A DNA stretch of 64,000 bases from NCBI RefSeq assembly GCF_033344935.1, contig NZ_JAWPMM010000001.1, positions 1,970,001 through 2,034,000 on the forward strand, given 5' to 3'. Shown here piece after piece: positions 14,338 through 57,117 of the stretch (within the stretch, counting starts at the first letter, position 1; each line of letters begins with the position of its first letter). The notes below the pieces were generated by a model. That model did no database searches and was not told where the DNA came from. It saw only the letters and a list, made by a program, of their open reading frames with translations. The stretch is from Reichenbachiella sp. (GTDB lineage: Bacteria > Bacteroidota > Bacteroidia > Cytophagales > Cyclobacteriaceae). The position numbers were made by a program, and so were the translations under genes.

Positions 14338-14342
14338 CAACT

Positions 14343-14930: not shown

Positions 14931-14952
14931 GAGTATACAATGTTTTTTATTA

Positions 14953-36756: not shown

Positions 36757-36826
36757 CGATTACAAATGTAGTATATTGCTGACGATTACAAAACGATTCG
36801 AACATTTTTTTTAATATTTGCCCCGC

Positions 36827-38000: not shown

Positions 38001-38014
38001 ATTGGTCGACCAAT
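38001..38014. promoter_or_regulatory. UxuR/FadR-type operator A
   Basis: Perfect 14-base palindrome ATTGGTCGACCAAT, identical to the site before the GntR gene (41955). About 226 bases upstream of the PL7 start. Confidence 0.7.
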
Positions 38015-38164
38015 ATTTTTTACAATATTTTTCTCCTTAGTCTGTCTCAGATTTCCACGATTTTGGGTTAAAAACACGTATTTTAACTTCTATTAATAAT
38101 AATAGGCTAAGGGTATTGGTGCGCCTGTTCAGATCAATTTTCTTTAATTATTATTAAATATTAA

Positions 38165-38178
38165 ATTGGTATACCAAA
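38165..38178. promoter_or_regulatory. UxuR/FadR-type operator B
   Basis: ATTGGTATACCAAA; the inner 12 bases TTGGTATACCAA are a perfect palindrome and equal the core of the known E. coli UxuR/ExuR consensus. About 62 bases upstream of the PL7 start. Confidence 0.7.
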
Positions 38179-38239
38179 AAATGATAATTCAACTATTAAT
38201 CGGCCAGAGTTGTATCATTTTTTAACTAAACCAATTATC

Positions 38240-39577
38240 ATGTTTTCAAACCTAAAACTACTGACGTTTAATCAGTCATTTGTACTGGTGGTCGGGGTGC
38301 TTTTTTGTGCCTTGATTACCTTTAGTTGCGCAGAGGAAGACGTATTGTCTGAACCTGAATTTACGGAGATCAAAAATGAAAGATCTGCGGTACCAACCGT
38401 TTCAAAAACCTATTTCATTAAAAATCGAAAAAGTGGGAAGTATATTGATGTAGCCGGATATAGCCACTCCAATGGTGGAAAACTGCATCAATGGACCCAT
38501 CATGGCGGTCTAAATCAGCAGTGGGAGATTATCTCTACTGGCGGTGGCTATTTTCGATTGAAAAGCAAGGAAAGCGGCAAATCATTTGACGTGACCGATA
38601 AAAGTACAGCCAACAAAGCTTATTTGCAGCAATGGGCCTACGGCGGCGGAACTAACCAGCAATTTACATTTCATAGTGCTGGCAATGGCTACTATATGAT
38701 CAAAGCCAGGCATAGTGGTAAGGCGCTAGATGGTACGGGTCAGACGGCCAATGGTTCTCGAATTTGGCAGTGGACTTATAATACCTCTAATCAAAATCAG
38801 CATTGGCTGTTTGAAGAGGTAGGATCATCCGGTGGAGGTGGAGGAGGCTCCGAGACTCCAGGTCAAAACCTAGGGCTTTCCATGGATGATTGGAAGCTCA
38901 ATGGATTTACCGGTAGTCCATCCAGTTCCACTTATCGTGATGATGTGCTGGATGCCACAGGTAAGACTTTTGCCAACTATTCGGACAACAACTATTTCTG
39001 GACTGATGGCACTTGGACTTATTTCAGGGTCTATAGAGGTCAGCCTAGTTCGAGTGGGTCAGGCAATCCTCGAGTCGAATTGAGAGAATTAGACGGTGGA
39101 GACCTGGCTGCTTGGAGTGGTTCTAGTGGCAACAATACCATGACTTGGACTGCCAGAGTAGACCGCTTGGGCAAAAGTGCTGATGGTAACAGCGGAGTCA
39201 CATGTTTCGGGCAGATTCATGGAGATGGAGATTCTGTGGATGATGTCATCCGCGTACAATTCCTCGGAACTCCAAATCAAACCTCTGGTGCTGTGAAGCT
39301 CAAAATCAGTGGGTATGTGACTGAAGAACTACAAGGTGGGAGTAAAACGTACACAGGCTATTCGCTTGATACGGAATATACTTTCAAACTGACCTATAAT
39401 AGTAGCGTCGTACGCTTCTATGTAAATGGTTCGCAAGTATTCAGTCAGTCCATGAGTGGGCACGACACGTCAAACAATTATTTTAAGGTAGGTGATTATA
39501 TGCAGTCCGTGCAAGGAGCTAGCTATGATGGTTCTAATGCTGTTGTAGCTATTAAAAGCTTGAGCGTGACGCATTAA
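38240..39577 (+). CDS. PL7 alginate lyase lipoprotein with ricin-type (CBM13) lectin domain
   Basis: 445 residues from the ATG at 38240 (a TTG 10 codons earlier is unlikely). A lipoprotein signal peptide ends at Cys30 (ALITFSC). Residues about 54-193 are a ricin B-type trefoil with three repeats marked by NQQW/NQQF/NQHW. After a Gly-Ser linker comes the PL7 catalytic domain with RVELREL (278-284), QIHGDGD (325-331) and YFKVGDYMQS near residue 413. These are the three conserved PL7 strands; QIH is usually associated with cleavage at guluronate-containing sites. It faces the outside on the cell surface and probably starts alginate depolymerisation. Two UxuR-type sites lie upstream and a terminator downstream. 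Confidence 0.93.
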   Translation: MFSNLKLLTFNQSFVLVVGVLFCALITFSCAEEDVLSEPEFTEIKNERSAVPTVSKTYFIKNRKSGKYIDVAGYSHSNGGKLHQWTHHGGLNQQWEIISTGGGYFRLKSKESGKSFDVTDKSTANKAYLQQWAYGGGTNQQFTFHSAGNGYYMIKARHSGKALDGTGQTANGSRIWQWTYNTSNQNQHWLFEEVGSSGGGGGGSETPGQNLGLSMDDWKLNGFTGSPSSSTYRDDVLDATGKTFANYSDNNYFWTDGTWTYFRVYRGQPSSSGSGNPRVELRELDGGDLAAWSGSSGNNTMTWTARVDRLGKSADGNSGVTCFGQIHGDGDSVDDVIRVQFLGTPNQTSGAVKLKISGYVTEELQGGSKTYTGYSLDTEYTFKLTYNSSVVRFYVNGSQVFSQSMSGHDTSNNYFKVGDYMQSVQGASYDGSNAVVAIKSLSVTH

Positions 39578-39606
39578 TGTTAGTAGCTTAATCTAATTAA
39601 AAATTA

Positions 39607-39632
39607 AAGGCTGCCACGTACATGGCAGCCTT
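39607..39632. terminator. Terminator between the convergent PL7 genes
   Basis: Perfect 10-base stem AAGGCTGCCA/TGGCAGCCTT with a 6-base loop, followed on the plus strand by CTTCATTTATT. It sits between the stop codons of two convergent lyase genes and may serve both. Confidence 0.8.
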
Positions 39633-39663
39633 CTTCATTTATTAATCGACCGCTTTTTAAGTA

Positions 39664-41634
39664 TTAGTTGTGTAGCACCCAGAAGTCGTAGACATACACT
39701 TCCCCATAATTATTAGGGTCGTCTGTATCACTGCCTTCTCTGTCTGGATTGCTTTGCGTGTAGTTGCCTATTTTGAAATAGGTCTGATCATAATCAATGT
39801 CCATCACATGGTCATTACTACCATCTTTTACCAAATAACTTGACGCATTGCCACTGTTATAGGCATTGGCCAAATTTCCGTCCTCGCTATAGTAGCAATA
39901 GTGCTTACCATTTATGATTTCAAATATGACTTCATGCTGAGTGCCCAGTGTGTAATTGGTCTTGATCGTCAAATCACTTCGGAGATTTCCTCCATTAAAA
40001 CTCAAGAACAAGTGAGAGCCTTCTAATCTTAAAACCATGGCGTCGTCAATTCCATCAGATTTATTCCCATGGATTTGAGTAGCTACCAAATGATCCTTGT
40101 TGATAGGAAGATGAGTAATGGCTTGCTTGGAATAGACTACATGCTGGCCGGTAGTAGTCCAATAAATATCAGAGCTTCCATCTGCTTTTCTTTCTCTCAA
40201 TTCTGATCTGATATAGTCTGAATTTGGTGTAGATCCATTGTTGCTGCGAATTGGCACTCTGAATACAATAGCGTCTTGATTGTCACTCACGAAATAATAT
40301 TCGTTGTTTGCTTCGCCACAAAGCGTTTTGTCCTCGCTTCCATCTGGGTAAGTGATTTTCCATTGATTACAATTGGCCATCAAGTCAGATGGTACATCGG
40401 CAGAACCGCCGCCATTACCAGATCCTTGAGGAGTAGCACTAACGGATTGGCTCGAAGATGCATTGCCAGAATCATCATAAGCAACCACACTGAAAGTATA
40501 TGAGTTGCCATTCGTTAGTCCTGTGATCGATTGACTCGATGATGAGGTAGAGCTGCTTCCCCCGCTGTAAGAAATCTCGACGTGATCAAAATCTGAATCC
40601 GAAGGATTAGTCCAGGATAAACTCACTTGTCCATCACCTGCGGTTGCACTTAGTCCAGAAACTGACCCAGGAGGGGTAGTGTCTCCACCGCCACCGCTAG
40701 TTTCACCCCAGATTTCAGCTTCAGTGATGCTGTTCCAACTGTTGCTCGAATTACCGAAGCCGGTGATCCGGATATAGCGCGCATTCACAGCATCAAAAGA
40801 GTAAGTTTCCAGGCTCGTTGTATTTCCGCTGCTACCGCTCGATTGGGCATTGAATACATCGGATAACGTTGAGGTGGTATTTCCGGCTCTGATTTTGAAG
40901 AATGAGCTTCGTTGATCTCCCTTATACCAGGCGACTTTCATACTGCTCACACTTTTAATGCTTCCTAAGTCATAGGTAATGTATTGTCCGGAACCGTTGG
41001 CTGACCAACGGGTACCTAGGTTTCCGTCCAAAGTGTTGGCAGGAACATTACCATCATTTGCGCTGGCCGACACAGATGATACTATTAGTTTGCCATTTTC
41101 ACCGCCTGATCCTCCAGACCCACTGCCTTCTATGAGAGCGAAGTCATCAAATCGACCGGTGCCTCCATTATACTTACCATAGATGATTATCGAGCTGTTG
41201 CTGCCCGAATTGAAGGAAACTGAAACTTCAGTCCAATCATCATAATCTCCGCCATCGTTGTAATCATTGCTTCCTGCAATGACGCCAATCGTTCCTTTTT
41301 CTAGGACGTAAGCGGTCAAAACGTAATTGGTGTTTTGTGAAACAGAAACTGACTGCTCTACTTTCCCGCTAGATCCGGTGATCTTAGCAGATTTTGATCC
41401 TGAATGAGAGTCGCTCGATAGGGCTGAGGGATCAGTATCATTCCAACCAGACCAGCTACTTTCAAAGCCAGGGTTGCTAAGGCTCACCTGATCGCCTGCA
41501 GCCATTTTTACATTTTCGATGTTGGCTAAGGCAACTCCCAGGTCTTCCTCCTGACAAGCACCGAGCCAAATCACAGATAGTACTAAGGAAGAAGCAATAA
41601 TCTCCTTACATAGCTTGTTAAACGTGTTTTTCAT
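39664..41634 (-). CDS. Multimodular PL7 alginate lyase lipoprotein (CBM, F5/8C, FN3, PL7)
   Basis: A 656-residue protein. Lipoprotein signal peptide with Cys27 (IWLGAC). Modules in order: a CBM4/9- or CBM16-like beta-sandwich (about 48-170; NPGFESSWSGW...RFDDFALIE), an F5/8 type C (CBM32-like) domain (about 183-311), a fibronectin type III domain (about 320-402) and a PL7 catalytic domain with RSELRER (476-482), QIHGN (520-524) and YFKIGNYTQS (619-628). Linkers are Gly/Ser-rich. It is a surface-tethered endolyase with accessory binding modules. It faces the CBM13-PL7 gene and has an ATTGGTAAACCAAT site 55 bases before its start, so it is likely co-regulated with the PUL. Confidence 0.93.
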   Translation of the reverse strand: MKNTFNKLCKEIIASSLVLSVIWLGACQEEDLGVALANIENVKMAAGDQVSLSNPGFESSWSGWNDTDPSALSSDSHSGSKSAKITGSSGKVEQSVSVSQNTNYVLTAYVLEKGTIGVIAGSNDYNDGGDYDDWTEVSVSFNSGSNSSIIIYGKYNGGTGRFDDFALIEGSGSGGSGGENGKLIVSSVSASANDGNVPANTLDGNLGTRWSANGSGQYITYDLGSIKSVSSMKVAWYKGDQRSSFFKIRAGNTTSTLSDVFNAQSSGSSGNTTSLETYSFDAVNARYIRITGFGNSSNSWNSITEAEIWGETSGGGGDTTPPGSVSGLSATAGDGQVSLSWTNPSDSDFDHVEISYSGGSSSTSSSSQSITGLTNGNSYTFSVVAYDDSGNASSSQSVSATPQGSGNGGGSADVPSDLMANCNQWKITYPDGSEDKTLCGEANNEYYFVSDNQDAIVFRVPIRSNNGSTPNSDYIRSELRERKADGSSDIYWTTTGQHVVYSKQAITHLPINKDHLVATQIHGNKSDGIDDAMVLRLEGSHLFLSFNGGNLRSDLTIKTNYTLGTQHEVIFEIINGKHYCYYSEDGNLANAYNSGNASSYLVKDGSNDHVMDIDYDQTYFKIGNYTQSNPDREGSDTDDPNNYGEVYVYDFWVLHN

Positions 41635-41688
41635 TTTGTTCTAGTTTGTGAATAAATGTTTAGATAGGTCACCGTTAGTCGATTAATG

Positions 41689-41702
41689 ATTGGTAAACCA
41701 AT
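41689..41702. promoter_or_regulatory. UxuR/FadR-type operator C
   Basis: ATTGGTAAACCAAT, palindromic apart from the central pair, 55 bases upstream of the minus-strand PL7 gene. Confidence 0.65.
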
Positions 41703-41954
41703 TACAATTAAGACCGATTAAAGCTATTTAAACAACTGAAAGTGAAAATTGGAACTGGTTGATCAGTGCTTATAAAGTCTTTTATAGGAAGACTTAGAAT
41801 TCTGATTTGAGAGAATATTTATGTGGTAATTGTATGAAAAAGAGCTTATAAGTGACGTAAGTAAGGATTTAGGTCGTAGTATCAATTTTTTGATGAGCTG
41901 CTGAATGGCAGTTTTTTTCATGCATTATTTTGCATTTTAAAATATTTATAATAA

Positions 41955-41968
41955 ATTGGTCGACCAAT
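41955..41968. promoter_or_regulatory. UxuR/FadR-type operator D (autoregulatory)
   Basis: Perfect palindrome ATTGGTCGACCAAT, 25 bases before the GntR start codon and identical to the site at 38001. Confidence 0.7.
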
Positions 41969-41992: not shown

Positions 41993-42757
41993 ATGGAATT
42001 GCTTAAGAATTTTAGTCAGATAGTTATTGAAACACCGGTTGATAAGATCATTAACCAAATCAAACAACTGATCACTTCTGGTCAATTAAAGCCTGGCGAT
42101 AAACTTCCATCAGAAAGGAAACTTTGCGATGTGTTGGGAGTTGGTAGAACACATTTGAGAGATGCTATCAAGAAGCTAGAGTTCTATGGTATTCTTAAAA
42201 CTCTTCCCCAAAGTGGAACGGTTGTGGCCGGTATGGGGATTACAGCTTTAGAAGGTTTGATTTCCGATGTACTCAAGTTAGAGGGGAATGATTTCAGTTC
42301 TTTAGTAGAAACTCGTGTAATTCTAGAAGTGAATAGTGCAGTGCTGGCGGCAGAGCACAGAACAGGCAACGATATACGAGAAATTGAAAAAGCACTATTT
42401 GCTCACAGAGCCAAAATAGAGCAAGCGGACCACGCCGTAGAGGAAGATTTGATGTTTCACCTGAAAATAGCTGAGGCTAGCAAAAATTCAGTACTCAAAT
42501 CGCTGATGTTGATCATCACACCTGATATTCTTTCTTATTTCAAACAACACGATGTGTGTGGAGAGGGAAGATCAAACAAAGCGGTAGAGCAACACGAAAA
42601 AATATTGGAAGCAATTAAAAATCAAGATAGAGAGACTGTAGCGGAGGAAATGCGAGGGCATTTAGTGGATATTCTTGATTATTCTAAAACGATACAAGTA
42701 GAACAATTATATAACAATAAAAAAGGAGAAGTTAATGGAGGATTGACAGGGACATAA
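41993..42757 (+). CDS. GntR-family (FadR/UxuR-type) regulator of alginate use
   Basis: A 254-residue protein. N-terminal winged helix (PVDKIINQIKQLITSGQLKPGDKLPSERKL split across residues 15-45; GVGRTHLRDAIKKLEFYG) and a C-terminal all-helical FCD ligand domain with the metal-site pattern (EDLMFHLKIAEASKN ... VEQHEKILEAI). UxuR, ExuR and other sugar-acid-responsive FadR-type proteins bind TTGGTnnACCAA-type sites; four such sites occur here, including one directly before this gene. It is located between the lyase genes and susC, so it is the probable PUL regulator, with a uronate-type effector (inference). Whether it represses or activates is not evident. Confidence 0.92.
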   Translation: MELLKNFSQIVIETPVDKIINQIKQLITSGQLKPGDKLPSERKLCDVLGVGRTHLRDAIKKLEFYGILKTLPQSGTVVAGMGITALEGLISDVLKLEGNDFSSLVETRVILEVNSAVLAAEHRTGNDIREIEKALFAHRAKIEQADHAVEEDLMFHLKIAEASKNSVLKSLMLIITPDILSYFKQHDVCGEGRSNKAVEQHEKILEAIKNQDRETVAEEMRGHLVDILDYSKTIQVEQLYNNKKGEVNGGLTGT

Positions 42758-42791
42758 AAAAAGAATGGATTAACCAAGGGTCAACCCATTC
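42756..42791. terminator. Imperfect hairpin after the GntR gene
   Basis: 9-base arms GAATGGATT/AACCCATTC with one mismatch and an 11-base loop, preceded by a run of A. There is no T-run on the plus strand, so termination here is uncertain. The following 170 bases up to susC contain no UxuR-type site. Confidence 0.35.
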
Positions 42792-42968
42792 ATCGCGGGA
42801 TCGATCACTCAATGTTAAAATATCAATTTGGCCATCGGTATTTCATTGAAGAGATCAATTGCTGATCCAAAGATAACCAAATACTGCAATTCTGTAGTAA
42901 AGGAGTGTCTTTTTTACCTACCCGCATCAGCAAATACTATTTACTAAGTGTGAACAAAATCATTTAAA

Positions 42969-45900
42969 ATGAAAAACATTTTACTATTATCTAAACGCTA
43001 CCAGAAGCTCAATTTGATGCTGATGATGTTGGCGTTGAATGTAATGATAATAACTCCGGTATTCGCTCAAGATATCAAAGTCTCAGGGGTAATAAACTCT
43101 GAAGAGAACGAACCATTACCAGGAGTTACAATCCTAGTGCAAGGAACAACGAAAGGAACAGTTTCTGATATTGATGGAAAGTATGCATTAGAAGTGCCTA
43201 CAGATGCTGTTTTAGATTTTTCTTTCATTGGTTATTTAAAGCAAAGCGTATCAGTAGGTGGAAGATCTACAATTGATGTTTCGATGTCTCCAGATATAGC
43301 ACAACTAGAAGAGGTTGTCGTAGTTGGATATGGTACTCAGAAAAAATCTACACTGACAGGTTCTATTTCCAAGGTCAAGAATGACAAATTAGATCAGATC
43401 GCAGTGGCAAGGGTAGATGATGCTCTTATAGGTCAGGTGTCTGGTGTAAATGTTCAGGCTACTAGTGCAGAAGCTGGTGCAGCCCCTACTATTACCATTA
43501 GAGGATTTGGTTCAATTACAGCGGATTCAGGACCAGCAGTGGTTGTGGATGGAGTGGTAGTAAGTTCTGATTTCTTAGGAAATATGAACATGAACGACAT
43601 TGCTTCATTTGAAGTGCTAAAAGATGCTGCATCAGCAGCTATTTATGGTAGTGAAGGTGCAAATGGTGTGATCATGATCACTACAAAAAGTGGTAAAGCT
43701 GGAAGAACAAAGTTTAGCTATGAAACCTTTATTGGATATAAAGAAGCTTTTGGAAGTGATGAATATAAAAAGAGTCTTTCTGATTGGGCAGCCAAAGAAA
43801 TGGCAGAAAATGGAGAGTTAAGTGAGCAGACTCAACACGCTCAAATCATTTCTGCGGCAGCAGGAGGTTTGGATCGTGATTGGCAGGACGTGTTCTTTGA
43901 TGGTGGAATTATCCAAAGCCATGCTTTATCTGCAAGAGGAGGAGATGAGAACACTACTTTTAGTGTGTCTTTGAAGTATTTGGAAGATGAAGGTGTAGTG
44001 ATTACTGATAATTTTAAGTTGTTCACTGGATCTGTGAAGATAGACACTAAGTTGAATAACAAGCTAAAGTTTGGATTCAATGCAACTCCTTCATATACCA
44101 AGACAAGACGTTTGCCTACTTCGGTACATAACCCAATTAGACAATCTCCTTGGTTGCCAATTTATCATACGGAAGAAACATTGGCTTTGGTGAATCAGGA
44201 TGACCCTGATGGAGCGAAATATTACCCGGACCTTATTCCAGGTGATTATGCCAGAGAAGATCATTTCGGCCCTATGGATGTAGATGGCGATGGTGATTTA
44301 GATGCTACTGCTAGAACATCAGGTGATCAAAACCCATATGCGCAGTATGTGGAAAGAGAGCATTATGATATTACAACTGCCATGTTAGGAGCTACTTACT
44401 TGAGCTACGAGATCATTGAAGGTCTGACTGCCAAAACTCGTTTCGGCTTCACATTGGATCAAAGAAAAAGAAGTCGTTGGGACGGTAATTACTACCACCA
44501 TAGTAATGCTGCAGAGTATTTTGTGCAGGATAGATATAGAACAAGAATGATTTCTGATAACTTCATTACTTACAACAAAGGTTTTGGTGATCATGATCTA
44601 AATGCAATGGTTGGTTTAACTGTTCAGCAGAGAACTACTGATTACAATGAAGTAGTAGGAACTGGATATAGCAATGACCTGCTTAAAAATTTGGCTGGTG
44701 CTACTTCAGTATCTGAGCAGGTAGACGTGAATTTGGTAAGAAGAAAAATCGGATACTTTGCTAGAGTGAATTATGCATTCAATGATAGATACCTATTGAA
44801 CGCATCATTCAGAAGAGATGGTAGCTCTGTATTTGGAGTAGATTCGAAGTGGGGTAATTTCCCAGCTGTATCAGCAGGGTGGAATGTTCACAATGAAGGA
44901 TTCATGGCTGGAAACAATTTCCTTAGCATTTTGAAATTAAGAGCAAGTTATGGTCGTACTGGATCAGAAAACTTTAGCGTTGGCGATGATATCGTAAATA
45001 CGTGGCCATACTTGGCGTTGTTGAACCCAGCTAATGCTGTGGTAGATAATACAGTTACTGGTGGTTTCACACCTCGAAACGTTGCCAATAGCTTATTGCA
45101 ATGGGAAGCGTCAGCTGAATTGACAGTAGGTGTGGACTATGGACTTTTAGGAAATAGAATTACAGGTTCTGTGGATTACTATGACAGAGTGAGCGATAAT
45201 CTATTGTTATTAAATCCAGTATCATATGGAACAGGTTTCAATAGTGCAATTGTAAACTTAGGTGAAGTAAAGAATTCAGGATTTGAATTTGAGTTGAGAA
45301 CAAAGAATGTTGTTGAAACCAAATTTGCATGGAGCACTACTTTAATCGCATCTACAAACAAAAATGAATTAACAGCATTTGGTGATTCAGATGGACAATT
45401 ATTAGAGGATACATTCGGAAGAAATTCTCAATGGATCAATGAAGTCGGTAGCCCAATTTCAACATTCTACGGTTATGTAGTAGATAGAAGTAATCCTATT
45501 CCAGATGAGTATGTAACTACTCCTTCAGTGCCGATTAACGGACAAGGTGAAGATGTAATTGTCGTTGATTTGAACGGTGATGGTGTGATTACTGATGCTG
45601 ATAAAACGAAACTTGGAAATCCTTATCCAGAATTGATCTGGAGTATTACCAATGATTTCAGAGTTGGAAATTTTGATTTTTCATTCATGTTCCAGGGAAG
45701 TCACGGCGCACAGGTTAAAAATATCGGTGATCAATATTTCTATACTTGGTGGCAAGGTGCGACAACAAGTCCTCAGCAGTTAGTTGATGATGGACTTATT
45801 GGACATACTTCTTTTGTTCAAGAAAAAGTATTGACTGACCAAGTGGTTCAAGATGCGGATTATTTCTCTCTACGAAATGTGAATATTGGTTACAGACTTC

Positions 45901-46106
45901 CAAAAGAACTAGTAGCTAAAATTGGATTGGGTGGAGTAAGAGTGTATGCTTCGGGTCAAAACCTTTTCTACATCACAAAGGATGAGTACACTGGTTTCAA
46001 CCCAGAGTATATCGACAATAGTAATAGCCCTACTTCTTATGGGTCTCAAAGAGCAGGATCTCCTCTCTTTAGAACTATGACTTTTGGTCTAAATGTTGAT
46101 TTTTAA
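42969..46106 (+). CDS. SusC-like TonB-dependent oligosaccharide transporter
   Basis: A 1045-residue outer-membrane protein: signal peptide (about 1-34, ending PVFAQ), a carboxypeptidase-regulatory-like beta-sandwich (about 37-115; GVINSEENEPLPGVTILVQG), the RagA/SusC hallmark EEVVVVGYG (about 118), a plug domain (VDGVVV; AASAAIYGSEGANGVIMITT) and a long beta-barrel ending in NVDF. It imports alginate oligosaccharides with SusD as lid (family knowledge plus context). It is the first gene of the susC-susD-SGBP transcript; no terminator occurs until 49539. Confidence 0.96.
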   Translation: MKNILLLSKRYQKLNLMLMMLALNVMIITPVFAQDIKVSGVINSEENEPLPGVTILVQGTTKGTVSDIDGKYALEVPTDAVLDFSFIGYLKQSVSVGGRSTIDVSMSPDIAQLEEVVVVGYGTQKKSTLTGSISKVKNDKLDQIAVARVDDALIGQVSGVNVQATSAEAGAAPTITIRGFGSITADSGPAVVVDGVVVSSDFLGNMNMNDIASFEVLKDAASAAIYGSEGANGVIMITTKSGKAGRTKFSYETFIGYKEAFGSDEYKKSLSDWAAKEMAENGELSEQTQHAQIISAAAGGLDRDWQDVFFDGGIIQSHALSARGGDENTTFSVSLKYLEDEGVVITDNFKLFTGSVKIDTKLNNKLKFGFNATPSYTKTRRLPTSVHNPIRQSPWLPIYHTEETLALVNQDDPDGAKYYPDLIPGDYAREDHFGPMDVDGDGDLDATARTSGDQNPYAQYVEREHYDITTAMLGATYLSYEIIEGLTAKTRFGFTLDQRKRSRWDGNYYHHSNAAEYFVQDRYRTRMISDNFITYNKGFGDHDLNAMVGLTVQQRTTDYNEVVGTGYSNDLLKNLAGATSVSEQVDVNLVRRKIGYFARVNYAFNDRYLLNASFRRDGSSVFGVDSKWGNFPAVSAGWNVHNEGFMAGNNFLSILKLRASYGRTGSENFSVGDDIVNTWPYLALLNPANAVVDNTVTGGFTPRNVANSLLQWEASAELTVGVDYGLLGNRITGSVDYYDRVSDNLLLLNPVSYGTGFNSAIVNLGEVKNSGFEFELRTKNVVETKFAWSTTLIASTNKNELTAFGDSDGQLLEDTFGRNSQWINEVGSPISTFYGYVVDRSNPIPDEYVTTPSVPINGQGEDVIVVDLNGDGVITDADKTKLGNPYPELIWSITNDFRVGNFDFSFMFQGSHGAQVKNIGDQYFYTWWQGATTSPQQLVDDGLIGHTSFVQEKVLTDQVVQDADYFSLRNVNIGYRLPKELVAKIGLGGVRVYASGQNLFYITKDEYTGFNPEYIDNSNSPTSYGSQRAGSPLFRTMTFGLNVDF

Positions 46107-46124
46107 TCTATAAAGACAGAGACT

Positions 46125-47552
46125 ATGAAATTTATAAAATATATAATAATAGCGGTGACGGGAGTAGGATTATTCTCTTGTGATACGGATGAGTTTCTAA
46201 ATCCGATACCCACAACTGCAGTAACAAGTAATTCATACTTTCAAACAGATGCAGATGTACTATCTGGTATCGTTGGAATATATGATGCGATTCAGGGAGT
46301 AAACGAAAGTACTCAAAGTAGTGATGGAGCTTACAACAGAGGGGTTCAATACGAATACCTACTAACTGAGCATCGCTCAGATAACACAAGAAGTGCGACA
46401 CTTGAAGGATCACGAGCTGATTTTCACAGATATCTTACTGATGCGGATAACACGCAGTCTGAAGATTATTGGGCATCTATGTATGATATTATCTTTAGAG
46501 CGAATAATATCTTGACCTTTATAGATATTGCTGATGCTAGTAATCAAGCGAGTTATACAGCTGAAGCCAAGTTTTTAAGAGCTTATGCTTATTTCAACCT
46601 GGTTAGATTGTACGGTGCGGTGCCATTGATCACAGAAGTAGCGCTTCCTAGTGATACTGAGGTGCTTTACACAAGAGTGGACGTAGCTACTGTTTATGCT
46701 CAGATTGTGGCTGATTTGCAAGAAGCAGTTGGTGCACTGGACAATTCACACAAAGCGAGAGCTTCTCAGGCAGCAGCACAAGCATTGTTGGCTAAGGTTT
46801 ACTTGTCTCAACCAACGCCTAATTATCAAGATGCGCAAGTATTGTGTGAAGCCATTATTAATGGAGGTGACTACTCTTTGATGACTAATTTCAATGATGT
46901 ATTCTATTCTGAATTGAATAATGAGGTGATATGGGCCATTCAATATGCCTCTGGAGATCCATTAGAAAGCCAGGGATTTTCAGCAGAATTCACTTCTGCA
47001 GTTCGTCAAGGGTTACAGGATGGTCTTAATATGCCGAACACGAACTTGATCAATGATCTTAATGCTTATGGTGGTAATAGAACTGCAACAAGTATTACAA
47101 ATGTTCAAGGATCGATAGAAGTAGCGAAATTCTTACCGGACGGTAATGATTGGACTAATGATTATGGTGGAAATGCAAGAAATTCTGGAAATGATTGGAT
47201 TGTGATTAGATACGCTGATGTGCTTTTAATGCATGTGGAAGCCATCTTGGGAACCTCTGGGTCTACAAGTAGTGCAGGAGCATTGTCTTCTTTTAATGCG
47301 ATAAGAAGCCGTGCAGGATTAACCGCTGCAACAGCTATTTCAAAAGATGATTTGTTGCTAGAAAGAAGAGTAGAGTTCGCATTTGAAAACCATAGGTTTT
47401 TCGACTTGCTACGTTTCGGTGTTGCTGATGCAGTTTTGAGTGCACATGCAGCAGATATGGGTTATTCAGACTACAGTGCAAGAGCTTTACTGCTCCCAAT
47501 CCCTGCAAGAGAAATTAACCAAAGTGGTGGTCTATTAACTCAAAACCCTTAA
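46125..47552 (+). CDS. SusD-like outer-membrane glycan-binding lipoprotein
   Basis: A 475-residue RagB/SusD protein with a lipoprotein signal peptide (GVGLFSC, about Cys19) and typical segments: LNPIPTTAVTSNSYFQTDAD at the mature N terminus, FLRAYAYFNLVRLYGAVPLI (TPR-like scaffold), AQALLAKVYL, and the C-terminal block YADVLLMHVEAI ... LLLERRVEFAFENHRFFDLLRFG. It caps the SusC barrel and captures oligosaccharides. 18 bases after susC. Confidence 0.96.
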   Translation: MKFIKYIIIAVTGVGLFSCDTDEFLNPIPTTAVTSNSYFQTDADVLSGIVGIYDAIQGVNESTQSSDGAYNRGVQYEYLLTEHRSDNTRSATLEGSRADFHRYLTDADNTQSEDYWASMYDIIFRANNILTFIDIADASNQASYTAEAKFLRAYAYFNLVRLYGAVPLITEVALPSDTEVLYTRVDVATVYAQIVADLQEAVGALDNSHKARASQAAAQALLAKVYLSQPTPNYQDAQVLCEAIINGGDYSLMTNFNDVFYSELNNEVIWAIQYASGDPLESQGFSAEFTSAVRQGLQDGLNMPNTNLINDLNAYGGNRTATSITNVQGSIEVAKFLPDGNDWTNDYGGNARNSGNDWIVIRYADVLLMHVEAILGTSGSTSSAGALSSFNAIRSRAGLTAATAISKDDLLLERRVEFAFENHRFFDLLRFGVADAVLSAHAADMGYSDYSARALLLPIPAREINQSGGLLTQNP

Positions 47553-47563
47553 AATCTTTGATT

Positions 47564-49525
47564 ATGAAAAATTCATTAAAAATAATTTTAAATAAGGTAT
47601 CAGGTCTGTTCTTTGGCTTGGTGGCCCTAGGAATTATCTACGGATGTGTTGAAGAACTACCGGGTCCAGGTTCTATGCCTGATGATATACCACCGGCAGC
47701 TAGTTTTTCTTACGCTTCTCAGGAGAATTTCTTAGAGATTAAGTTTACAAACTTGTCTGTAGAAGCGCTAAGCTATGAGTGGGACTTTGGAGTTGATGTT
47801 GAAATTCCAGACAGTGTTTTGACAGCTGTTGATCCTTCTTACACTTATGCATCAGTTGGAACATATGACGTTACCTTGACTGCAGTTGATGGTTTGGGCG
47901 TAGTTAGCGACACGACTATTGCAGTGGTGGTTGAAGAGGGCCCATATCTGCCGGTCATTTTGGAAGCACAATTTGAAGGTGATGGTGCAACAGGAGATGC
48001 CAGAGATCCTTGGGATGCTGAGTGGTCTACTGTAATTCAAATCACATCAGATGGTGCGTTGGATGCAGACGGAAACAAAACCAAAGGAGGTAAACTGCCA
48101 AGCGACGGACAAAGAGTGGCTTATCAGGAGATGGTTGTTGAAGCAGAATCTAATTATGACATTGCTTTTGTCTATACGTTGACTGATGCTGTAGCAGGTA
48201 AGATGACGGTAGAAATATTAGATGTTACTGCCAATGGAGAGACTTTTCAAACTTATGAAGATACACGAGATCATGTGATAGGCGCAGTTACTTTGAATGA
48301 TCAGGATGATCCGTCAACCTATGTAGGAGGAGAAGTATCATTTGCCTCTGGTACTAGTACTAAAGTGGCTATCATGGTCTCCAACTCTGTAGGTATCGAA
48401 GCGAGATTTGATAATTTCACAGTTGAAATTGGTAATGCTGGAGCAGTTCCTCCATCTGCGAATTTCACTGTTGCGCAAAGCGATGTGAATTATTTGGAAT
48501 ACACTTTTACCAATGAATCATTAAATGCGGCTACTTATTCGTGGGATTTTGGTGATGAATCGACTCCTTCAACAGAAGAATCTCCAGTATATGAATATGC
48601 TGAAGCTGGTACATATACTGTGACTTTGACTGTTAAAAGTGAAGGTGGTTTGACAGGAGAATTGAGTGAAGTGATTGTGATTCATGATCCGGTAACTCCC
48701 GAATTTTCTTTTGCAGAAGGTGCCAATGAATTCACAATTGAATTTACTGACGAGTCAGTAAATGCTGCAAGTGTTCTTTGGGATTTTGGTGATGGTTTCA
48801 AATACTCTACTACAGAAGAACATGCTACTGTTACACATGTTTACAATGGTGGACCTGGGTTTTACACTGTTACGCTTACTTCAACAAGTAGTACAGGCCT
48901 AGAAGTTGAAAAATCAACTACACTTGCTATTGGAGTTCCAAAAGTATTGGGTGGAGATTTTGAAGATACAGATACTGGTGATGATAGAGACTATTGGAGA
49001 GCTGCTAGTTTCTCAGGAGGTGAAACCAGTACTACTCCTTATGGAGGAAGTAGTGATGGTGCTTTTCAAACTTATGATGGCACGGATACAGAAACTAAAA
49101 CAAGAGGTGCAAAAATCGATGCCTCGAGATGTGCGGTGGATGCTAATGGAAATGTGGATACTGGTAATACCAGATATGCCTATCAAGAGATGTCTCTTAG
49201 CCCGGGTGTAGAGTATTATCTTGAATTCTCATATAACAATGCGGATGGTACTATTGTAGCCGGTGAGATATTGGATGGTCACTTTGATGATGGATCCGAT
49301 GCGTTAGCGGCTTCTTTAGATGGTTCTAGCTTAATTGAACTTCAGGGAACTATTTCCAATGGTGAGATCAGTGGAGGTAGTGATAGTCCTCAATGGAGAA
49401 CCATTAGAGGGAAGTTCACAGCACCAGTAAGCGGTGAAGTATCTATTTGGATGTGGGCATTTGGTGGTAAGTCATACTATGACAACATCAAAATATTGCC
49501 AGCTTCAATTGTAGAAGCCCCTTAA
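47564..49525 (+). CDS. PKD-rich surface glycan-binding lipoprotein (SusE/F position)
   Basis: 653 residues from the ATG at 47564 (a TTG two codons earlier is less likely). Lipoprotein signal peptide with the lipobox IIYGC. Modules: PKD 1 (PAASFSYAS...YEWDFG), a CBM-like beta-sandwich (about 130-285; FEGDGATGDARDPWDAEW), PKD 2 (SANFTVAQ...YSWDFGDES), PKD 3 (PEFSFAEGA...LWDFGDGF) and a second CBM-like sandwich (about 465-645; FEDTDTGDDRDYWRAASF). The two sandwiches share RDxW...GxxxxxGxRxAYQEM motifs and look like an internal duplication. It is third in the susCD operon, the usual place for a surface glycan-binding protein, followed by a terminator. Confidence 0.9.
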   Translation: MKNSLKIILNKVSGLFFGLVALGIIYGCVEELPGPGSMPDDIPPAASFSYASQENFLEIKFTNLSVEALSYEWDFGVDVEIPDSVLTAVDPSYTYASVGTYDVTLTAVDGLGVVSDTTIAVVVEEGPYLPVILEAQFEGDGATGDARDPWDAEWSTVIQITSDGALDADGNKTKGGKLPSDGQRVAYQEMVVEAESNYDIAFVYTLTDAVAGKMTVEILDVTANGETFQTYEDTRDHVIGAVTLNDQDDPSTYVGGEVSFASGTSTKVAIMVSNSVGIEARFDNFTVEIGNAGAVPPSANFTVAQSDVNYLEYTFTNESLNAATYSWDFGDESTPSTEESPVYEYAEAGTYTVTLTVKSEGGLTGELSEVIVIHDPVTPEFSFAEGANEFTIEFTDESVNAASVLWDFGDGFKYSTTEEHATVTHVYNGGPGFYTVTLTSTSSTGLEVEKSTTLAIGVPKVLGGDFEDTDTGDDRDYWRAASFSGGETSTTPYGGSSDGAFQTYDGTDTETKTRGAKIDASRCAVDANGNVDTGNTRYAYQEMSLSPGVEYYLEFSYNNADGTIVAGEILDGHFDDGSDALAASLDGSSLIELQGTISNGEISGGSDSPQWRTIRGKFTAPVSGEVSIWMWAFGGKSYYDNIKILPASIVEAP

Positions 49526-49538
49526 ATATCAATGTAAT

Positions 49539-49580: not shown

Positions 49581-49667
49581 ACATTTCCCTGTAAAAATCG
49601 ATGTAAAAGGATATCCATCAATAATATCAGGATGGACAGCGTGAGCTGAATCCTAACAAAATAAAAA

Positions 49668-51956
49668 ATGAAAGAATTGAAGAATATACAGTTAATTAAT
49701 CCTGTAACCCTCAGCTTACTATTGTTGCTGGTTATGTTCGGAACTGAGTGTGGGTCCAAAGTGAATACTCAAAATTCAGTGGCTAATGCTGAAGAATTGA
49801 AACTAAAACTTTCCCTGGCTGCTCCGGGTGATACCATCATATTGGCCAACGGCGAATGGAAGGATGCCGAGTTGGTGATAAAAGCCAATGGTACTGAAGA
49901 AGCGCCAATCGTGGTGATGGCTGAAACATTAGGAGGAGTACAATTAACAGGAGCTTCAAACTTAAAGTTAGCTGGAGAATATGTAGTAGTCAGTGGCTTG
50001 CATTTTACCAATGGGTACACACCTACTGCTGAAGTGATTTCTTTCAAAATCAAAAAAGACCAACTAGCGAACAATTGTAGAATAACCCAAACACTGGTGG
50101 AGAACTACTCCAATCCAGAAAGACATGAAAGTGATTATTGGGTCGGTATGTACGGAAAAAACAACCGATTTGATCACAACGCCCTAGTAGGCAAAGGAAA
50201 CAAAGGAGTGACCATGGCTGTGAGACTCAACTCACAAGAAAGCCTTGAAAACAATCACTTAATCGATCACAACTATTTTGGTCCAAGAGAAAACTTAGGA
50301 GCCAACGGAGGGGAGACTTTGAGAATAGGCACCAGCCATTATTCGCTATCCTTCTCGAATACACAAGTCATCAATAACTACTTCGACCGTTGTGATGGCG
50401 AGCATGAAATTATCTCAAACAAATCATGCGGAAATTTATTCAAAGGCAATGTGTTCGACGAATGTGTAGGGACATTGACCTTCAGACATGGCAATGAAAA
50501 TACAGCCGAAAGCAATGCTTTCTTCGGTAATGGAAAGCCACATACTGGTGGTATCAGAGTTATCAATGAAAAACAAAAAGTATTAAATAATTACGGCTAC
50601 GGCTTGACAGGACATAGATTCAGAGGCGCAATGGTTGTAATGAACGGAGTACCTAATTCACCGATCAATAGGTACAATCAGGTCATTGATTCGGAAATCA
50701 ATAACAATACCTTCATCAACTGCGATTATGTACAACTATGTGCGGGTAGCGATGAGGAGAGAAGTGCTATTCCACAATCCACTTCTATTTCAAACAATAT
50801 TTTTTGGAATGAAGCCAAGGATGATGTGTTTACTGCTTACGATGATATTTCTGGAATCAGTTTTAATGATAATATTATTAGTCCCAATATTAAACCTATA
50901 GCTAGTGGTTTTAAGGGAGTAGACGCAGAATTGACTAAAAACCAAAATGGAATCTATAGCCTAAACGATGAATCTATTACTGCGGGTATAACAGCAGACT
51001 TTTCAGTGGTTTCGAAAGAGGCTACTGGGCCTTCGTGGTACACTAAACCAAAAAATAGCAAGACTTTTGGCTATGGTAGAAATGTAGCTGTAGAAGAAGG
51101 AGCCAATCTTTTTGATGTAATGAAAGATGCTAGGGCAGGAGATGTATACACCCTGGCTGGTGGAGAATACTTGCTAGAAAAGAAAGTGCCTGTTAGCGTA
51201 CCTATCACGGTTCAGTCGACTGAAGGTGCTGTTTTGAAGTTTGAAAAATCAAACTTATTCGTCATAGAAAATGGTGGAGCACTCCAAATGGAAGGGTTGG
51301 TCATAGATGGTGCTGAATGTCCAGATTATGCTGGCAACGCAGTGGTATCAACTAGTCGATATTCCATGAATAAGAATTACAAATTGTTCATCAACAACTG
51401 TGAGTTTAGAGATCTGGATGTCAACCATTCATTCAATATCCTTAGAGTGTATAAGAACACTTTCGCAGATAGTATCCTCATTGAGAATTCTAAGTTCAGT
51501 GATGTGAGTGGTACGATTCTGGAGTTGAATCAGGAATCTGATGATATTGGCATCTACAATGCTGAATTCGTGATTTTGAATAACAACTCATTCAAGAATA
51601 TAGGTAAAGAGATTGTAAACCTGCACAGAGGAGGAAGTGACGAAAGTACTTTTGGACCGCTACTTTTTATTGATCATTGTTCGTTTGAAAAGGTGGGTTA
51701 TGGACCGAAAAATAAAGGAGGTAAGTCATTCACGCTTCATGGCGTACAAAAAACCATGATATCGAATTCCGTATTCGATGACATTAAGACTTTCGATATT
51801 TTTCATACGGTGGGAGAGCCTATCACAAAGATATCTGATTGTAATATCGACCAATCAAAGCTGGCCATCAGCGATAAAACAGCCACATTGTCCAATCTCA
51901 AATTGGCTAAGAATGCCAAAGGTAGTGATGGTGAAAAACTAGGGTCAGCACTATGA
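49668..51956 (+). CDS. PL6 alginate lyase, two-domain beta-helix
   Basis: A 762-residue protein with an N-terminal signal peptide (hydrophobic 12-25; a Cys at 28 follows but GTEC is a poor lipobox). The catalytic N-terminal parallel beta-helix shows the PL6 site: GGETLRIG (Glu216), DGEHEIISNKS (Glu245, Lys252) and FRHGN (Arg273). The 21-residue spacing of Lys and Arg equals that of characterised PL6/chondroitinase B-type lyases, in which they are the base and acid with calcium neutralising the carboxylate. A second beta-helix (about 470-760) is present, as in AlyGC-type two-domain enzymes. It starts the degradation transcript; its stop overlaps the PL17 start by four bases (ATGA). Confidence 0.94.
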   Translation: MKELKNIQLINPVTLSLLLLLVMFGTECGSKVNTQNSVANAEELKLKLSLAAPGDTIILANGEWKDAELVIKANGTEEAPIVVMAETLGGVQLTGASNLKLAGEYVVVSGLHFTNGYTPTAEVISFKIKKDQLANNCRITQTLVENYSNPERHESDYWVGMYGKNNRFDHNALVGKGNKGVTMAVRLNSQESLENNHLIDHNYFGPRENLGANGGETLRIGTSHYSLSFSNTQVINNYFDRCDGEHEIISNKSCGNLFKGNVFDECVGTLTFRHGNENTAESNAFFGNGKPHTGGIRVINEKQKVLNNYGYGLTGHRFRGAMVVMNGVPNSPINRYNQVIDSEINNNTFINCDYVQLCAGSDEERSAIPQSTSISNNIFWNEAKDDVFTAYDDISGISFNDNIISPNIKPIASGFKGVDAELTKNQNGIYSLNDESITAGITADFSVVSKEATGPSWYTKPKNSKTFGYGRNVAVEEGANLFDVMKDARAGDVYTLAGGEYLLEKKVPVSVPITVQSTEGAVLKFEKSNLFVIENGGALQMEGLVIDGAECPDYAGNAVVSTSRYSMNKNYKLFINNCEFRDLDVNHSFNILRVYKNTFADSILIENSKFSDVSGTILELNQESDDIGIYNAEFVILNNNSFKNIGKEIVNLHRGGSDESTFGPLLFIDHCSFEKVGYGPKNKGGKSFTLHGVQKTMISNSVFDDIKTFDIFHTVGEPITKISDCNIDQSKLAISDKTATLSNLKLAKNAKGSDGEKLGSAL

Positions 51957-54229
51957 AGATAAAGTTTTGTTATATCAGTATAGGTTTTAGTGTGGCTGTT
52001 GTTCTGTCGTTCTTCTCTTGTGTTGGAGGAGAAGAAAAGACAGCACAACAGTTCCTATCTGACAAACATCCAAGTTTAGTACTTACAGCGGCTGGTGTTG
52101 CTGACATCAAAGCCAATTTGGGCAAAGCACCTCTTTTTGATCAAACATTGGAGGCGGTAATCACTGAAGTAGATTCAGAAATTACCAATGGTATTGAAGT
52201 ACCAGTTCCGAAAGATTTGGCAGGTGGTTATACGCACGAGCGACATAAGTCTAACTTTTTTATCATCCAAAAGGCAGGAGTCTTGTTTCAGATTACTGGG
52301 GATGAAAAGTACGCAATTTATGTGCGGGATATGCTTTTAGCTTACGCTGAAATGTGGCCTACCATTGGAAAGCATCCAGCAGAGCGATCGTATGCTCGAG
52401 GTAAGATCTTTTGGCAATGTTTGAATGATGCGAACTGGTTGGTGTATGCTAGTCAGGGATACGATTGTATCTATGACTGGTTGGATGTAGCCACTAGTGA
52501 AAAATTGAATAAGGAATTATTCAGACCTTATGCTGAATATATTTCTATTGAGAACCCACAGTTTTTTAATCGAATTCACAACCACAGTACTTGGGGAAAT
52601 GCTGCCGTAGGTATGATTGGCTTGGTTATGGAGGACGAAGAACTGATCAACTGGGCGCTGTATGGATTGGATATTCAGGTGCCAGGTGATATTATTAAGG
52701 ATAACGATGGGGGCGATATACAATTGGATGGACAAAAGGAAGCAGGGTTCTTAGCACAGATAGATCACTCTTTTTCTCCAGATGGCTATTATACCGAAGG
52801 GCCATACTATCAGCGATATGCGATGTATCCATTCTTGATTTTTGCACAGGCTTTGGCTAACAAGAAACCGGAACTTAAAATATTAGAATACAGAAATGGC
52901 CTCCTTATTAAAGCCATTTATGCGTTGATCAATCAGACTAATTCTGCAGGAGAATTTTTCCCGATCAACGATTCGCAAAAAGGAATGTCATTGGCTTCTC
53001 GAGAATTGGTAAATGCTGTAAGTATGGCTTATGCGTTTGGAGGTAATGATCCTGGACTATTGTCAATTGTAGAACAACAAGGACGAGTGCCATTGAATAA
53101 CACAGGCATGGCTTCAGCAAAAGGAATAGCAGAAGGTAAGGCTCAAAAGTTTGAATACAAAAGTTTGGAGTTGACTGATGGGGCTAATGGTGACGAAGGA
53201 GCTATTGGAATCATTCGGTCGGAAGACTTGACTTTGATGATGAAATATGCAAAACACGGAATGGGGCATGGTCACTTCGATCGTTTGGGCTTCTTATTGT
53301 ATGACGAAACGGGCGAAGTGATTCAGGACTATGGCGCCGCACGCTGGGTAAATATAGAGCATAAAGATGGAGGAGGTTATCTCAAAGAAAACCATAGTTG
53401 GGCGAAAGAAACAGTAGCTCATAACACGCTTGTAGTAGATAAAGACTCCCATTTTGACGGGAATGTCAGGGAGGCAGACAAAACTTCTGGAACTCCTTAT
53501 TACTTCTTAGGTGAGGGCTCAGTGCAGATTGCCAGTGCCAAGGAACTGAACGCCTATAAGAACATAGAAATGCAAAGAACTATGGCTGTAGTAGATATTG
53601 AAGAATTAGAAAATCCATTGGTGATAGACTTGTTTTCAGTGCAAGCACCAGAAGGGACTAGGTATGACATGCCACTTTATTATATGGGAGAGTTCATGTC
53701 TTCTAATCAGAAGTTTGAAACCAACAACGACCTCAGCCCACTAGGACAGAATGACGGTTATCAGCATCTGTGGGCAGAAGCACAGACAGGTTTGGTGGGT
53801 GATGTATTCAGTATGACTTGGTTCAATAGTAAGAAATTTTATACGATTACCTCTGCAGTTGAAGCTGGAGATGAGGTGATTCTTACAAGAATTGGGGCCA
53901 ATGACCCGAACTTTAACCTTAGACGAGATCCTGGTTTGATCCATCGTAGGAAGGGTGGTAATACACTTTTCGCAAGCCTTTATGAAGCACATGGTAGCTA
54001 TGATTACGCATCAGAGCGCCCGATAAACTCATTCACTTCTGTCGCTAAACTAGAAGTATTGCATCAATCAGCATTATATGTGGTAGTTGGATTCACACTC
54101 AAAACTGGCGAAAACTATCAGTTTGCTTTTTCACTAGCGGATAGCAGTGAAGCAAGCAAACATGGAGTGAAAACTTCAGAGGGGCTATTAGAATGGAAAG
54201 GGATTTACGATTTTAAAAAATACGATTAA
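51953..54229 (+). CDS. PL17 oligoalginate lyase lipoprotein
   Basis: A 758-residue protein with a lipoprotein signal (LSFFSC). The N-terminal half is an alpha-toroid (AlginateLyase/PL17 type) with RIHNHSTWGNAA (Asn/His pair at about 209-211) and EGPYYQRYA (Tyr at about 283-284), the residues used by PL17 enzymes. The C-terminal half is a heparinase II/III-like beta-sandwich (KHGMGHGHFDRLGFLLY, DYGAARWVNIEHK, AHNTLVVD). The enzyme cuts oligomers exolytically to unsaturated monouronate. The lipoprotein signal puts it in the periplasm or on the membrane. It overlaps PL6 by 4 bases and precedes kdgF by 7. Confidence 0.95.
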   Translation: MKIKFCYISIGFSVAVVLSFFSCVGGEEKTAQQFLSDKHPSLVLTAAGVADIKANLGKAPLFDQTLEAVITEVDSEITNGIEVPVPKDLAGGYTHERHKSNFFIIQKAGVLFQITGDEKYAIYVRDMLLAYAEMWPTIGKHPAERSYARGKIFWQCLNDANWLVYASQGYDCIYDWLDVATSEKLNKELFRPYAEYISIENPQFFNRIHNHSTWGNAAVGMIGLVMEDEELINWALYGLDIQVPGDIIKDNDGGDIQLDGQKEAGFLAQIDHSFSPDGYYTEGPYYQRYAMYPFLIFAQALANKKPELKILEYRNGLLIKAIYALINQTNSAGEFFPINDSQKGMSLASRELVNAVSMAYAFGGNDPGLLSIVEQQGRVPLNNTGMASAKGIAEGKAQKFEYKSLELTDGANGDEGAIGIIRSEDLTLMMKYAKHGMGHGHFDRLGFLLYDETGEVIQDYGAARWVNIEHKDGGGYLKENHSWAKETVAHNTLVVDKDSHFDGNVREADKTSGTPYYFLGEGSVQIASAKELNAYKNIEMQRTMAVVDIEELENPLVIDLFSVQAPEGTRYDMPLYYMGEFMSSNQKFETNNDLSPLGQNDGYQHLWAEAQTGLVGDVFSMTWFNSKKFYTITSAVEAGDEVILTRIGANDPNFNLRRDPGLIHRRKGGNTLFASLYEAHGSYDYASERPINSFTSVAKLEVLHQSALYVVVGFTLKTGENYQFAFSLADSSEASKHGVKTSEGLLEWKGIYDFKKYD

Positions 54230-57053: not shown

Positions 57054-57117
57054 ATCAGCTCAATAGTAGGAATAATGCGATCTAATGATCTTTAATAAAA
57101 AACATGAGGGTTCAAGT

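What the first reader, a model, noticed from the sequence alone, without database searches (positions are those of the whole stretch)
38001..41968. Four UxuR-type palindromes define a GntR regulon inside the alginate cluster
ATTGGTCGACCAAT (38001, 41955), ATTGGTATACCAAA (38165) and ATTGGTAAACCAAT (41689) lie before both modular PL7 genes and before the GntR gene itself. The core equals the known UxuR/ExuR operator TTGGTATACCAA, and the encoded regulator is of the FadR/UxuR type. None was found before susC, PL6, the SDR or the tandem PL7 genes, so the regulator may control only the surface endolyases and itself.
Basis: partly seen in the sequence, partly recalled or inferred. Interest (0 to 1): 0.75.

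Follow-up and report, generated by a model that had tools for sequence, protein, structure and literature searches.

The report
Alginate gene switch plus antisense RNA
The four palindromes are real and are almost certainly binding sites for the alginate cluster's own repressor, a kind of switch already known from a related marine bacterium, and right behind the repressor gene lies a predicted small antisense RNA that may form a second layer of control.

Summary
Observation confirmed: three exact and one one-mismatch ATTGGTnnACCAAT at the stated coordinates. They look like operators, not chance. Genome-wide the core TTGGTnnACCAA occurs 11 times; the four here are intergenic, the seven others inside ORFs. 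In 80 loci of related regulators it occurs 124 times, against about 2.3 for 49 permuted patterns; 57 of 82 gntR copies have it within 250 nt upstream, against 24 of 3397 random windows. The regulator resembles in role AusR, the published alginate repressor of Zobellia; it is no UxuR (64 bits, cut-off 442). "Only endolyases and itself" is not supported: most related gntR genes have no sense-strand terminator, and some relatives carry sites before susC and PL6. New: antisense to the gntR-susC gap (42756-42875) lies a predicted ~108-nt structured RNA with promoter box and terminator. In 148 genomes a covariance model gave 19 matches, 16 of them antisense at the 3' end of this gntR, with compensatory base changes. 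It resembles DonS-type PUL RNAs of Bacteroides. Its expression and function are untested.

The parts
38001..38014 (.). operator 1 (ATTGGTCGACCAAT), distal site before the CBM13-PL7 gene
   Evidence: intergenic, (L136)
38165..38178 (.). operator 2 (ATTGGTATACCAAA), proximal site before the CBM13-PL7 gene
   Evidence: intergenic, (L137)
38210..39577 (+). modular alginate lyase: ricin-type lectin (CBM13-like) + PL7 (Alginate_lyase2); likely ATG at 38240
   Evidence: Pfam
39664..41634 (-). modular alginate lyase: F5/8 type C (CBM32-like) + Fn3 + PL7
   Evidence: Pfam
41689..41702 (.). operator 3 (ATTGGTAAACCAAT), before the CBM32-PL7 gene
   Evidence: R. faecimaris has ACTGGTAAACCAAT, one base changed, at the aligned place
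41955..41968 (.). operator 4 (ATTGGTCGACCAAT), before gntR; exact core also in R. faecimaris and R. agariperforans
41993..42757 (+). GntR/FCD regulator, AusR-like in setting
   Evidence: Pfam GntR + FCD; NCBIfam
42756..42863 (-). predicted antisense small RNA (~108 nt), two hairpins, ends in T-run; convergent to gntR, divergent to susC; 5' end placed from the -7 box, not mapped
42868..42875 (-). TATCTTTG, exact match to the Bacteroidetes -7 promoter box TAnnTTTG; no clear -33 box seen
   Evidence: box described in PMC9723704 (passages)
42763..42791 (-). intrinsic terminator of the antisense RNA (13 pairs + T-run)
42969..46106 (+). SusC-like TonB-dependent transporter
   Evidence: Pfam
46125..47552 (+). 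SusD-like
   Evidence: Pfam
47558..49525 (+). PKD-domain protein
   Evidence: Pfam
49668..51956 (+). PL6-type lyase (Chondroitinas_B family; PL6 is my reading of the Pfam hit)
   Evidence: Pfam
51953..54229 (+). PL17-type lyase (Alginate_lyase + Hepar_II_III_C; PL17 is my reading)
   Evidence: Pfam
54237..54611 (+). cupin, probably KdgF-like
   Evidence: Pfam
54623..55894 (+). MFS transporter
   Evidence: Pfam
56235..56993 (+). SDR, perhaps a DEH reductase
   Evidence: Pfam
57085..58002 (+). PL7 alginate lyase (tandem 1), no operator before it
   Evidence: Pfam
58020..58979 (+). PL7 alginate lyase (tandem 2), no operator before it
   Evidence: Pfam

Best explanation
The palindromes are operators of the FCD-type GntR repressor encoded at 41993-42757, a functional counterpart of AusR. 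Without alginate the dimer sits on the operators in front of both modular PL7 genes and its own gene. Because no sense-strand intrinsic terminator follows gntR, the operator in front of it probably also gates the following transporter and lyase genes (susC to MFS) by read-through. An alginate breakdown product (by analogy with AusR; which one is unknown) releases it. As a second layer, a short antisense RNA made from the opposite strand of the gntR-susC gap probably lowers read-through or expression from gntR into susC, so that regulator and transporter operon are not expressed equally. Shown by sequence: the sites, their conservation and intergenic placement, the conserved structured RNA with compensatory changes, its position. 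Inferred: binding, repression, inducer, read-through, transcription and action of the RNA.
For: Sites. Genome: 4 of 4 window sites intergenic, 16 of 16 other sites with at most 1 mismatch inside ORFs. In 80 relatives' loci: 124 core sites; mean over 50 half-site/gap permutations 4.76 with the motif itself included, about 2.3 for the other 49. 57 of 82 gntR copies have a site within 250 nt (26 one, 28 two, 3 three), against 24 of 3397 random windows of the same loci; PMC7874173 reports 'single, double or triple copies' for AusR (passage). Cluster content. RNA: terminator plus TAnnTTTG box 95-125 nt before its end in 26 of 92 gntR 3' regions on the antisense strand, 0 of 92 on the sense strand, 4 of 600 behind other ORFs of at least 200 aa. 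Covariance model: 16 of 19 matches antisense at gntR; 10 of the 16 not in the training set, 5 of these 10 at places I had not looked at before (G134, G007, G042, G061, G072 at 416418). 19 of 24 pairs with both-side changes, 100 such cells against 38 in shuffles, 0 of 500 shuffles as high on all five measures, covariation 0.375 against at most 0.123 when slid. Folding z -3.3 to -6.2 in 10 of 10 folded (the terminator hairpin contributes). The gap is 195/211 identical to R. faecimaris while gntR is 630/762.
Against: No binding, expression or mutant data. The Zobellia AusR paper is not held and its protein was not compared, so orthology is untested. 25 of 82 gntR copies lack an exact site within 250 nt (one, L071, has only 73 nt of upstream sequence), among them Roseivirga and Fulvivirga. 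The relatives are not independent of each other. No operator precedes susC, the SDR or the tandem PL7 genes, so read-through is needed and unproven. The 95-125 nt criterion was set after seeing the spacings. 8 of the 23 family genomes that have the regulator have no model match at it, and most Saprospiraceae loci lack the RNA by these criteria. In R. agariperforans and Echinicola PL17, not susC, follows gntR and the RNA. A3 was fitted to the model and includes one short plus-strand self-match, which favours its structure; unfitted A2 has 13 of 24 pairs with both-side changes, while unfitted A1, which holds the window, supports only the terminator hairpin. No clear -33 box.
Confidence: 0.75

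Rival explanations
1. One reading: a UxuR-type regulator that controls only the two modular PL7 genes and itself, leaving the transporter operon to other control.
For: No site with up to 2 mismatches before susC, PL6, SDR or the tandem PL7 genes.
Against: UxuR score 63.8 against a cut-off of 442; one search lists a terminator after gntR only on the minus strand, and 7 of 92 related gntR genes have one on the sense strand; sites before susC- and PL6-labelled genes in some relatives.
Confidence: 0.13
2. The palindromes are bound mainly by another regulator of the genome: the second GntR (41% identical) or the LacI-type protein at 36818-37861.
For: Both exist; related GntR proteins can share half-sites.
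Against: The second GntR lies near a 6-phosphogluconate dehydrogenase gene and has no exact site, and one 1-mismatch place at -248, in the 400 nt upstream; the motif follows the AusR-like gene across the 80 loci, of which only L019 shows this LacI.
Confidence: 0.04
3. The conserved element at 42752-42875 is not an RNA gene but a DNA element (susC promoter region or regulator site) or a structured susC mRNA leader read from the plus strand.
For: The plus strand can form mirror-image hairpins; the whole gap up to susC is conserved with R. faecimaris, not only the RNA.
Against: The T-run and the exact TAnnTTTG box lie on the minus strand; 26 of 92 against 0 of 92 for the two strands; compensatory changes point to a folded strand.
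Confidence: 0.17
4. Chance palindromes.
For: Genome-wide counts do not exceed the reversed control (20 against 23; 11 against 9).
Against: Placement and conservation.
Confidence: 0.01

Closest known systems
AusR of Zobellia galactanivorans (Dudek et al. 2020; not held, seen only as described in passages of PMC8286568, PMC7874173 and PMC8073546)
   Same: GntR-family regulator encoded in an alginate PUL; operators in single, double or triple copies before alginate genes; released by alginate intermediates (for the window protein: predicted).
   Different: Another order of Bacteroidota (recalled); PL7 genes with CBM13/CBM32-like domains on one side of gntR; an antisense RNA after gntR, not mentioned in the passages seen. 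Sequence identity to AusR was not measured.
UxuR/ExuR of E. coli
   Same: GntR-family regulators; operator half-site similar (recalled).
   Different: 64 and 65 bits against cut-offs of 442 and 396; different pathway and gene context.
DonS family of PUL antisense RNAs in Bacteroides (78-128 nt; passages of PMC7366714 and PMC10994844)
   Same: Short RNA on the opposite strand, encoded divergently to a susC homologue.
   Different: Here a conserved sequence and structure family tied to the AusR-like gene, also where PL17 rather than susC follows; sequence relation to DonS not tested; no Rfam family matches in the window at gathering threshold.
Plasmid antisense systems with a 5'-rUUGGCG-3' target loop (ColIb-P9; seen only as a cited title in PMC10724649, PMC4374534 and PMC9977716)
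   Same: UUGGCG or its complement stands at the apical loop in 7 of 22 aligned RNAs (my count).
   Different: The window has UUGGCC on the plus strand; the motif is not invariant and may be coincidence.

Membership tests
AusR-type alginate repressor | GntR family (here HTH plus FCD domain) | tested here: met
   GntR 1.1e-17, FCD 3.3e-24
AusR-type alginate repressor | encoded inside an alginate PUL | tested here: met
   PL6-, PL7-, PL17-type lyases, cupin, SusCD around it
AusR-type alginate repressor | one to three operator copies before alginate genes | tested here: met
   by sequence only: 1 before gntR, 2 and 1 before the PL7 genes; conserved
AusR-type alginate repressor | protein binds the operators and is released by alginate intermediates | not testable with these tools
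   needs gel shift
AusR-type alginate repressor | orthology to the Zobellia protein | not tested
   paper not held, sequence not at hand
UxuR/ExuR | passes the NCBIfam equivalog cut-off | tested here: not met
   UxuR 63.8 of 442, ExuR 64.8 of 396
DonS-type PUL antisense RNA | 78-128 nt | tested here: met
   about 108 nt from the predicted start 42863 to the T-run end 42756; ends not mapped
DonS-type PUL antisense RNA | encoded divergently to a susC homologue | tested here: met
   minus strand, upstream of susC at 42969
DonS-type PUL antisense RNA | overlaps the susC transcript | tested here: inconclusive
   only if susC is read through from gntR or has a long leader; no plus-strand TAnnTTTG in 42701-42968
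DonS-type PUL antisense RNA | lowers expression of its susC | not testable with these tools
   needs mutants and RNA data

The most novel reading that the evidence does not exclude
Alginate loci of Cytophagales and relatives carry a family of structured antisense RNAs, not found described in my searches, fixed to the 3' end of an AusR-like repressor gene; together the operator and the antisense RNA form a two-tier switch in which one promoter makes regulator and transporter, and the RNA decides how much transcription passes from gntR into the uptake operon.
Probability: 0.5. Interest if true: 0.68.

Novelty: new variant of a known kind. Interest (0 to 1): 0.5.

Why it matters
It extends the described alginate-repressor model to Cytophagales and relatives with an operator readable in many Bacteroidota genomes, and it offers a testable second layer: a conserved antisense RNA at a marine polysaccharide locus, a kind of RNA described so far, in what I saw, for gut Bacteroides. 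Alginate is a major brown-algal polysaccharide, so how bacteria gate its uptake bears on carbon turnover.

Tried and rejected
UxuR membership: rejected on scores. Solved structures: only distant GntR-family proteins, best E 3.1e-15. Rfam: no match in the window at gathering threshold. DNA looping between paired sites: spacings 164 and 266 bp are 15.6 and 25.3 turns, no support. A short motif of the RNA (ATCGCCAAATTGAT, 2 mismatches) is not specific: 75 forward and 64 reverse hits in the genome against 14 and 12 for the control; of the 30 places given as loci only the one after gntR has terminator and box. DNA search with the 211-nt gap: 5 of 148 genomes, the own one included, and in 2 only 24-26 nt. 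Model matches not at gntR: 3 of 19, E 0.002-0.009, against about 1.5 expected by chance in 148 genomes at E 0.01, E-values being rough. Sigma-70-type promoter scan: 29 found against 37.1 in shuffles, uninformative. The site consensus (152 sites) also took in own-genome and overlapping loci and is not used for counts.

Rows dropped: one search examined 94 gntR 3' regions (window included); 58 had a minus-strand terminator somewhere in the stretch (not all of them next to gntR). One search kept 36, 29 with an exact box and 7 with a loose one. Searches aligned 12 and 10 of these 36 (3 loose ones among them); 14 were left out (10 exact, 4 loose), mostly Carboxylicivirga-type and other unlike sequences; one of these, L087, was folded. 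One search leaves out the window and stretches under 200 nt. A3 used 26 sources picked because they had matches. The class-wide search found the regulator in 17 of 395 genomes, the own one included, at E up to 1e-40; its members at 45-48% identity (L225-L228) have a one-mismatch site at -69 to -72 (three) or an exact one at -163 (one); no TAnnTTTG box stands within about 230 nt after gntR in three of them and one at 220 nt in L228; the terminator finder was not run there. Protein structure prediction was not run.

Literature: ten searches in a library of open-licence papers. 'alginate' + 'antisense RNA' + 'polysaccharide utilization' gave one paper, on a fish pathogen, with one mention of alginate; one search gave none. 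No paper was read whole; passages or listings only.

Full report
What is there. The window is G000:C1:1970001-2034000 of a 4.88-Mb genome; the nearest named relative found is Reichenbachiella faecimaris (95% identical GntR). Around 33.6-59 kb lies an alginate cluster: KDPG aldolase, PFK, a PfkB-type kinase (probably KDG kinase) and LacI to the left, two modular PL7 genes before a GntR/FCD regulator, then susC, susD, a PKD protein, PL6- and PL17-type lyases, a cupin (probably KdgF-like), MFS, SDR and two tandem PL7 genes. The genome's four PL7-family (PF08787) matches are all here.

The observation. All four palindromes are at the stated places. Genome-wide counts alone show no enrichment (20 sites at up to 1 mismatch against 23 for the reversed pattern; 11 exact cores against 9). 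Placement differs: the 4 window sites are intergenic, the 16 others with at most 1 mismatch, and the 7 other exact cores, are all inside ORFs of at least 80 aa. So the regulon readable from such sites is confined to this cluster.

Conservation. The regulator was used to fetch the best 80 of 136 related loci from named genomes. In these 1.07 Mb the core TTGGT-N2-ACCAA occurs 124 times; over all 50 permutations of half-site and gap, the motif included, the mean is 4.76, that is about 2.3 for the other 49, and the next two (28 and 12) can be sub-frames of the same palindrome. Of 82 gntR copies, 57 have a site within 250 nt upstream (26 one, 28 two, 3 three), most of the sites 14 to 96 nt before the start; 24 of 3397 random windows do. 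By tblastn labels, sites away from gntR stand before PL6 (6), susC (6) and PL7 (2); 10 have no labelled gene behind them, 3 of these inside ORFs. The site before gntR is kept in R. faecimaris and R. agariperforans; the site before the CBM32-PL7 gene has one base changed in R. faecimaris, which lacks the CBM13-PL7 gene and its two sites at this place. 25 of 82 gntR copies have no exact site.

Which regulator. Pfam gives GntR + FCD. No NCBIfam model reaches its cut-off; ExuR and UxuR are fifth and sixth. The described counterpart is AusR of Zobellia galactanivorans, reported to repress most alginate genes through single, double or triple operators and to be released by alginate products (passages of PMC8286568, PMC7874173, PMC8073546; original not held). 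Homologues at 45-48% identity in another family keep a one-mismatch site at -69 to -72 in three of four and an exact one at -163 in the fourth. A second GntR in the genome (41%) lies near a 6-phosphogluconate dehydrogenase gene and has no exact site.

What it controls. But only 7 of 92 related gntR genes have a sense-strand intrinsic terminator in the next 250 nt, and in the window the hairpin after gntR carries its T-run on the minus strand. Transcription from the gntR promoter may therefore run into susC and beyond, so that the gntR operator gates the operon too. This is inference.

The antisense RNA. The 211-nt gap between gntR and susC is 195/211 identical to R. faecimaris, more than gntR itself (630/762). 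On the minus strand it has an exact TAnnTTTG box (42868-42875), then about 108 nt to a terminator ending at the gntR stop, with two hairpins (-34.9 kcal/mol, z -4.0). The same layout recurs: terminator plus box 95-125 nt before its end in 26 of 92 gntR 3' regions on the antisense strand, 0 of 92 on the sense strand, 4 of 600 behind other ORFs of the same loci; the distance criterion was chosen. A covariance model from 10 sequences was run on 148 genomes of the family: 19 matches in 17 genomes, 16 of them antisense and -17 to 67 nt from the 3' end of the gntR match. These 16 lie in 15 of the 23 genomes that have the regulator. 6 of the 16 are training sequences, 10 are not (one of the 10 from a genome that also gave a training sequence), and 5 of the 10 are at places not looked at before. 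On 28 matches (one is a short plus-strand self-match of a terminator) 19 of 24 pairs show changes on both sides; no shuffle of 500 reaches any of the five measures, and sliding destroys the signal. That alignment was fitted to the model; the unfitted alignment A2 had 13 of 24 pairs with both-side changes, while unfitted A1, with the window, supported only the terminator hairpin. No Rfam family matches at gathering threshold. The model finds one copy in this genome.

How it may work. PUL antisense RNAs of 78-128 nt divergent to susC are known in Bacteroides (DonS; PMC7366714 passage), with 32 annotated in B. thetaiotaomicron and both negative and positive correlations with the PUL (PMC10994844 passages). 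By analogy the RNA may pair with read-through transcripts from gntR and reduce expression of the operon behind it. UUGGCG or its complement stands at the apical loop in 7 of 22 aligned RNAs; that loop is known from a plasmid antisense system (title seen), but it is not invariant and the window has UUGGCC. In R. agariperforans and Echinicola the RNA is kept though PL17 follows gntR, so the target would be the operon behind gntR, whatever its first gene.

Verdict. The operator finding is real and known in kind (AusR). The added value is the antisense RNA, well supported as a conserved structured RNA and untested in expression and function.

Noticed in passing
42969-49668 against L019 (R. faecimaris) 8977-15148: Flanking blocks are 77-84% identical in DNA, but susC, susD and the PKD gene are only 51, 46 and 41% identical in protein, with the changes inside susC and near the start of PL6: the uptake cassette looks exchanged between close species.
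   Followed up: partly
34297-35517: A phosphofructokinase (PF00365) lies between the PfkB-type kinase and KDPG aldolase, conserved at 96% in R. faecimaris; its role in an alginate cluster is unclear.
   Followed up: no
36818-37861: A LacI-type regulator divergent to the kinase operon suggests separate control of the central KDG steps; no site of the palindrome (up to 2 mismatches) lies in the gap between it and the kinase gene.
   Followed up: no
L080:8741-8866, L081:8742-8869, L085:8214-8341, L087:8738-8866, L089:1881-2009, L092:8733-8862: Carboxylicivirga and relatives have a different RNA candidate at the same place: TAGCTTTG box, 117-121 nt to the terminator end, terminator AGTGCG..CGCACT.
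   Followed up: partly
59206-61434: A chemotaxis-receptor-like protein (MCP signal, HAMP, PAS) directly follows the tandem PL7 genes.
   Followed up: no
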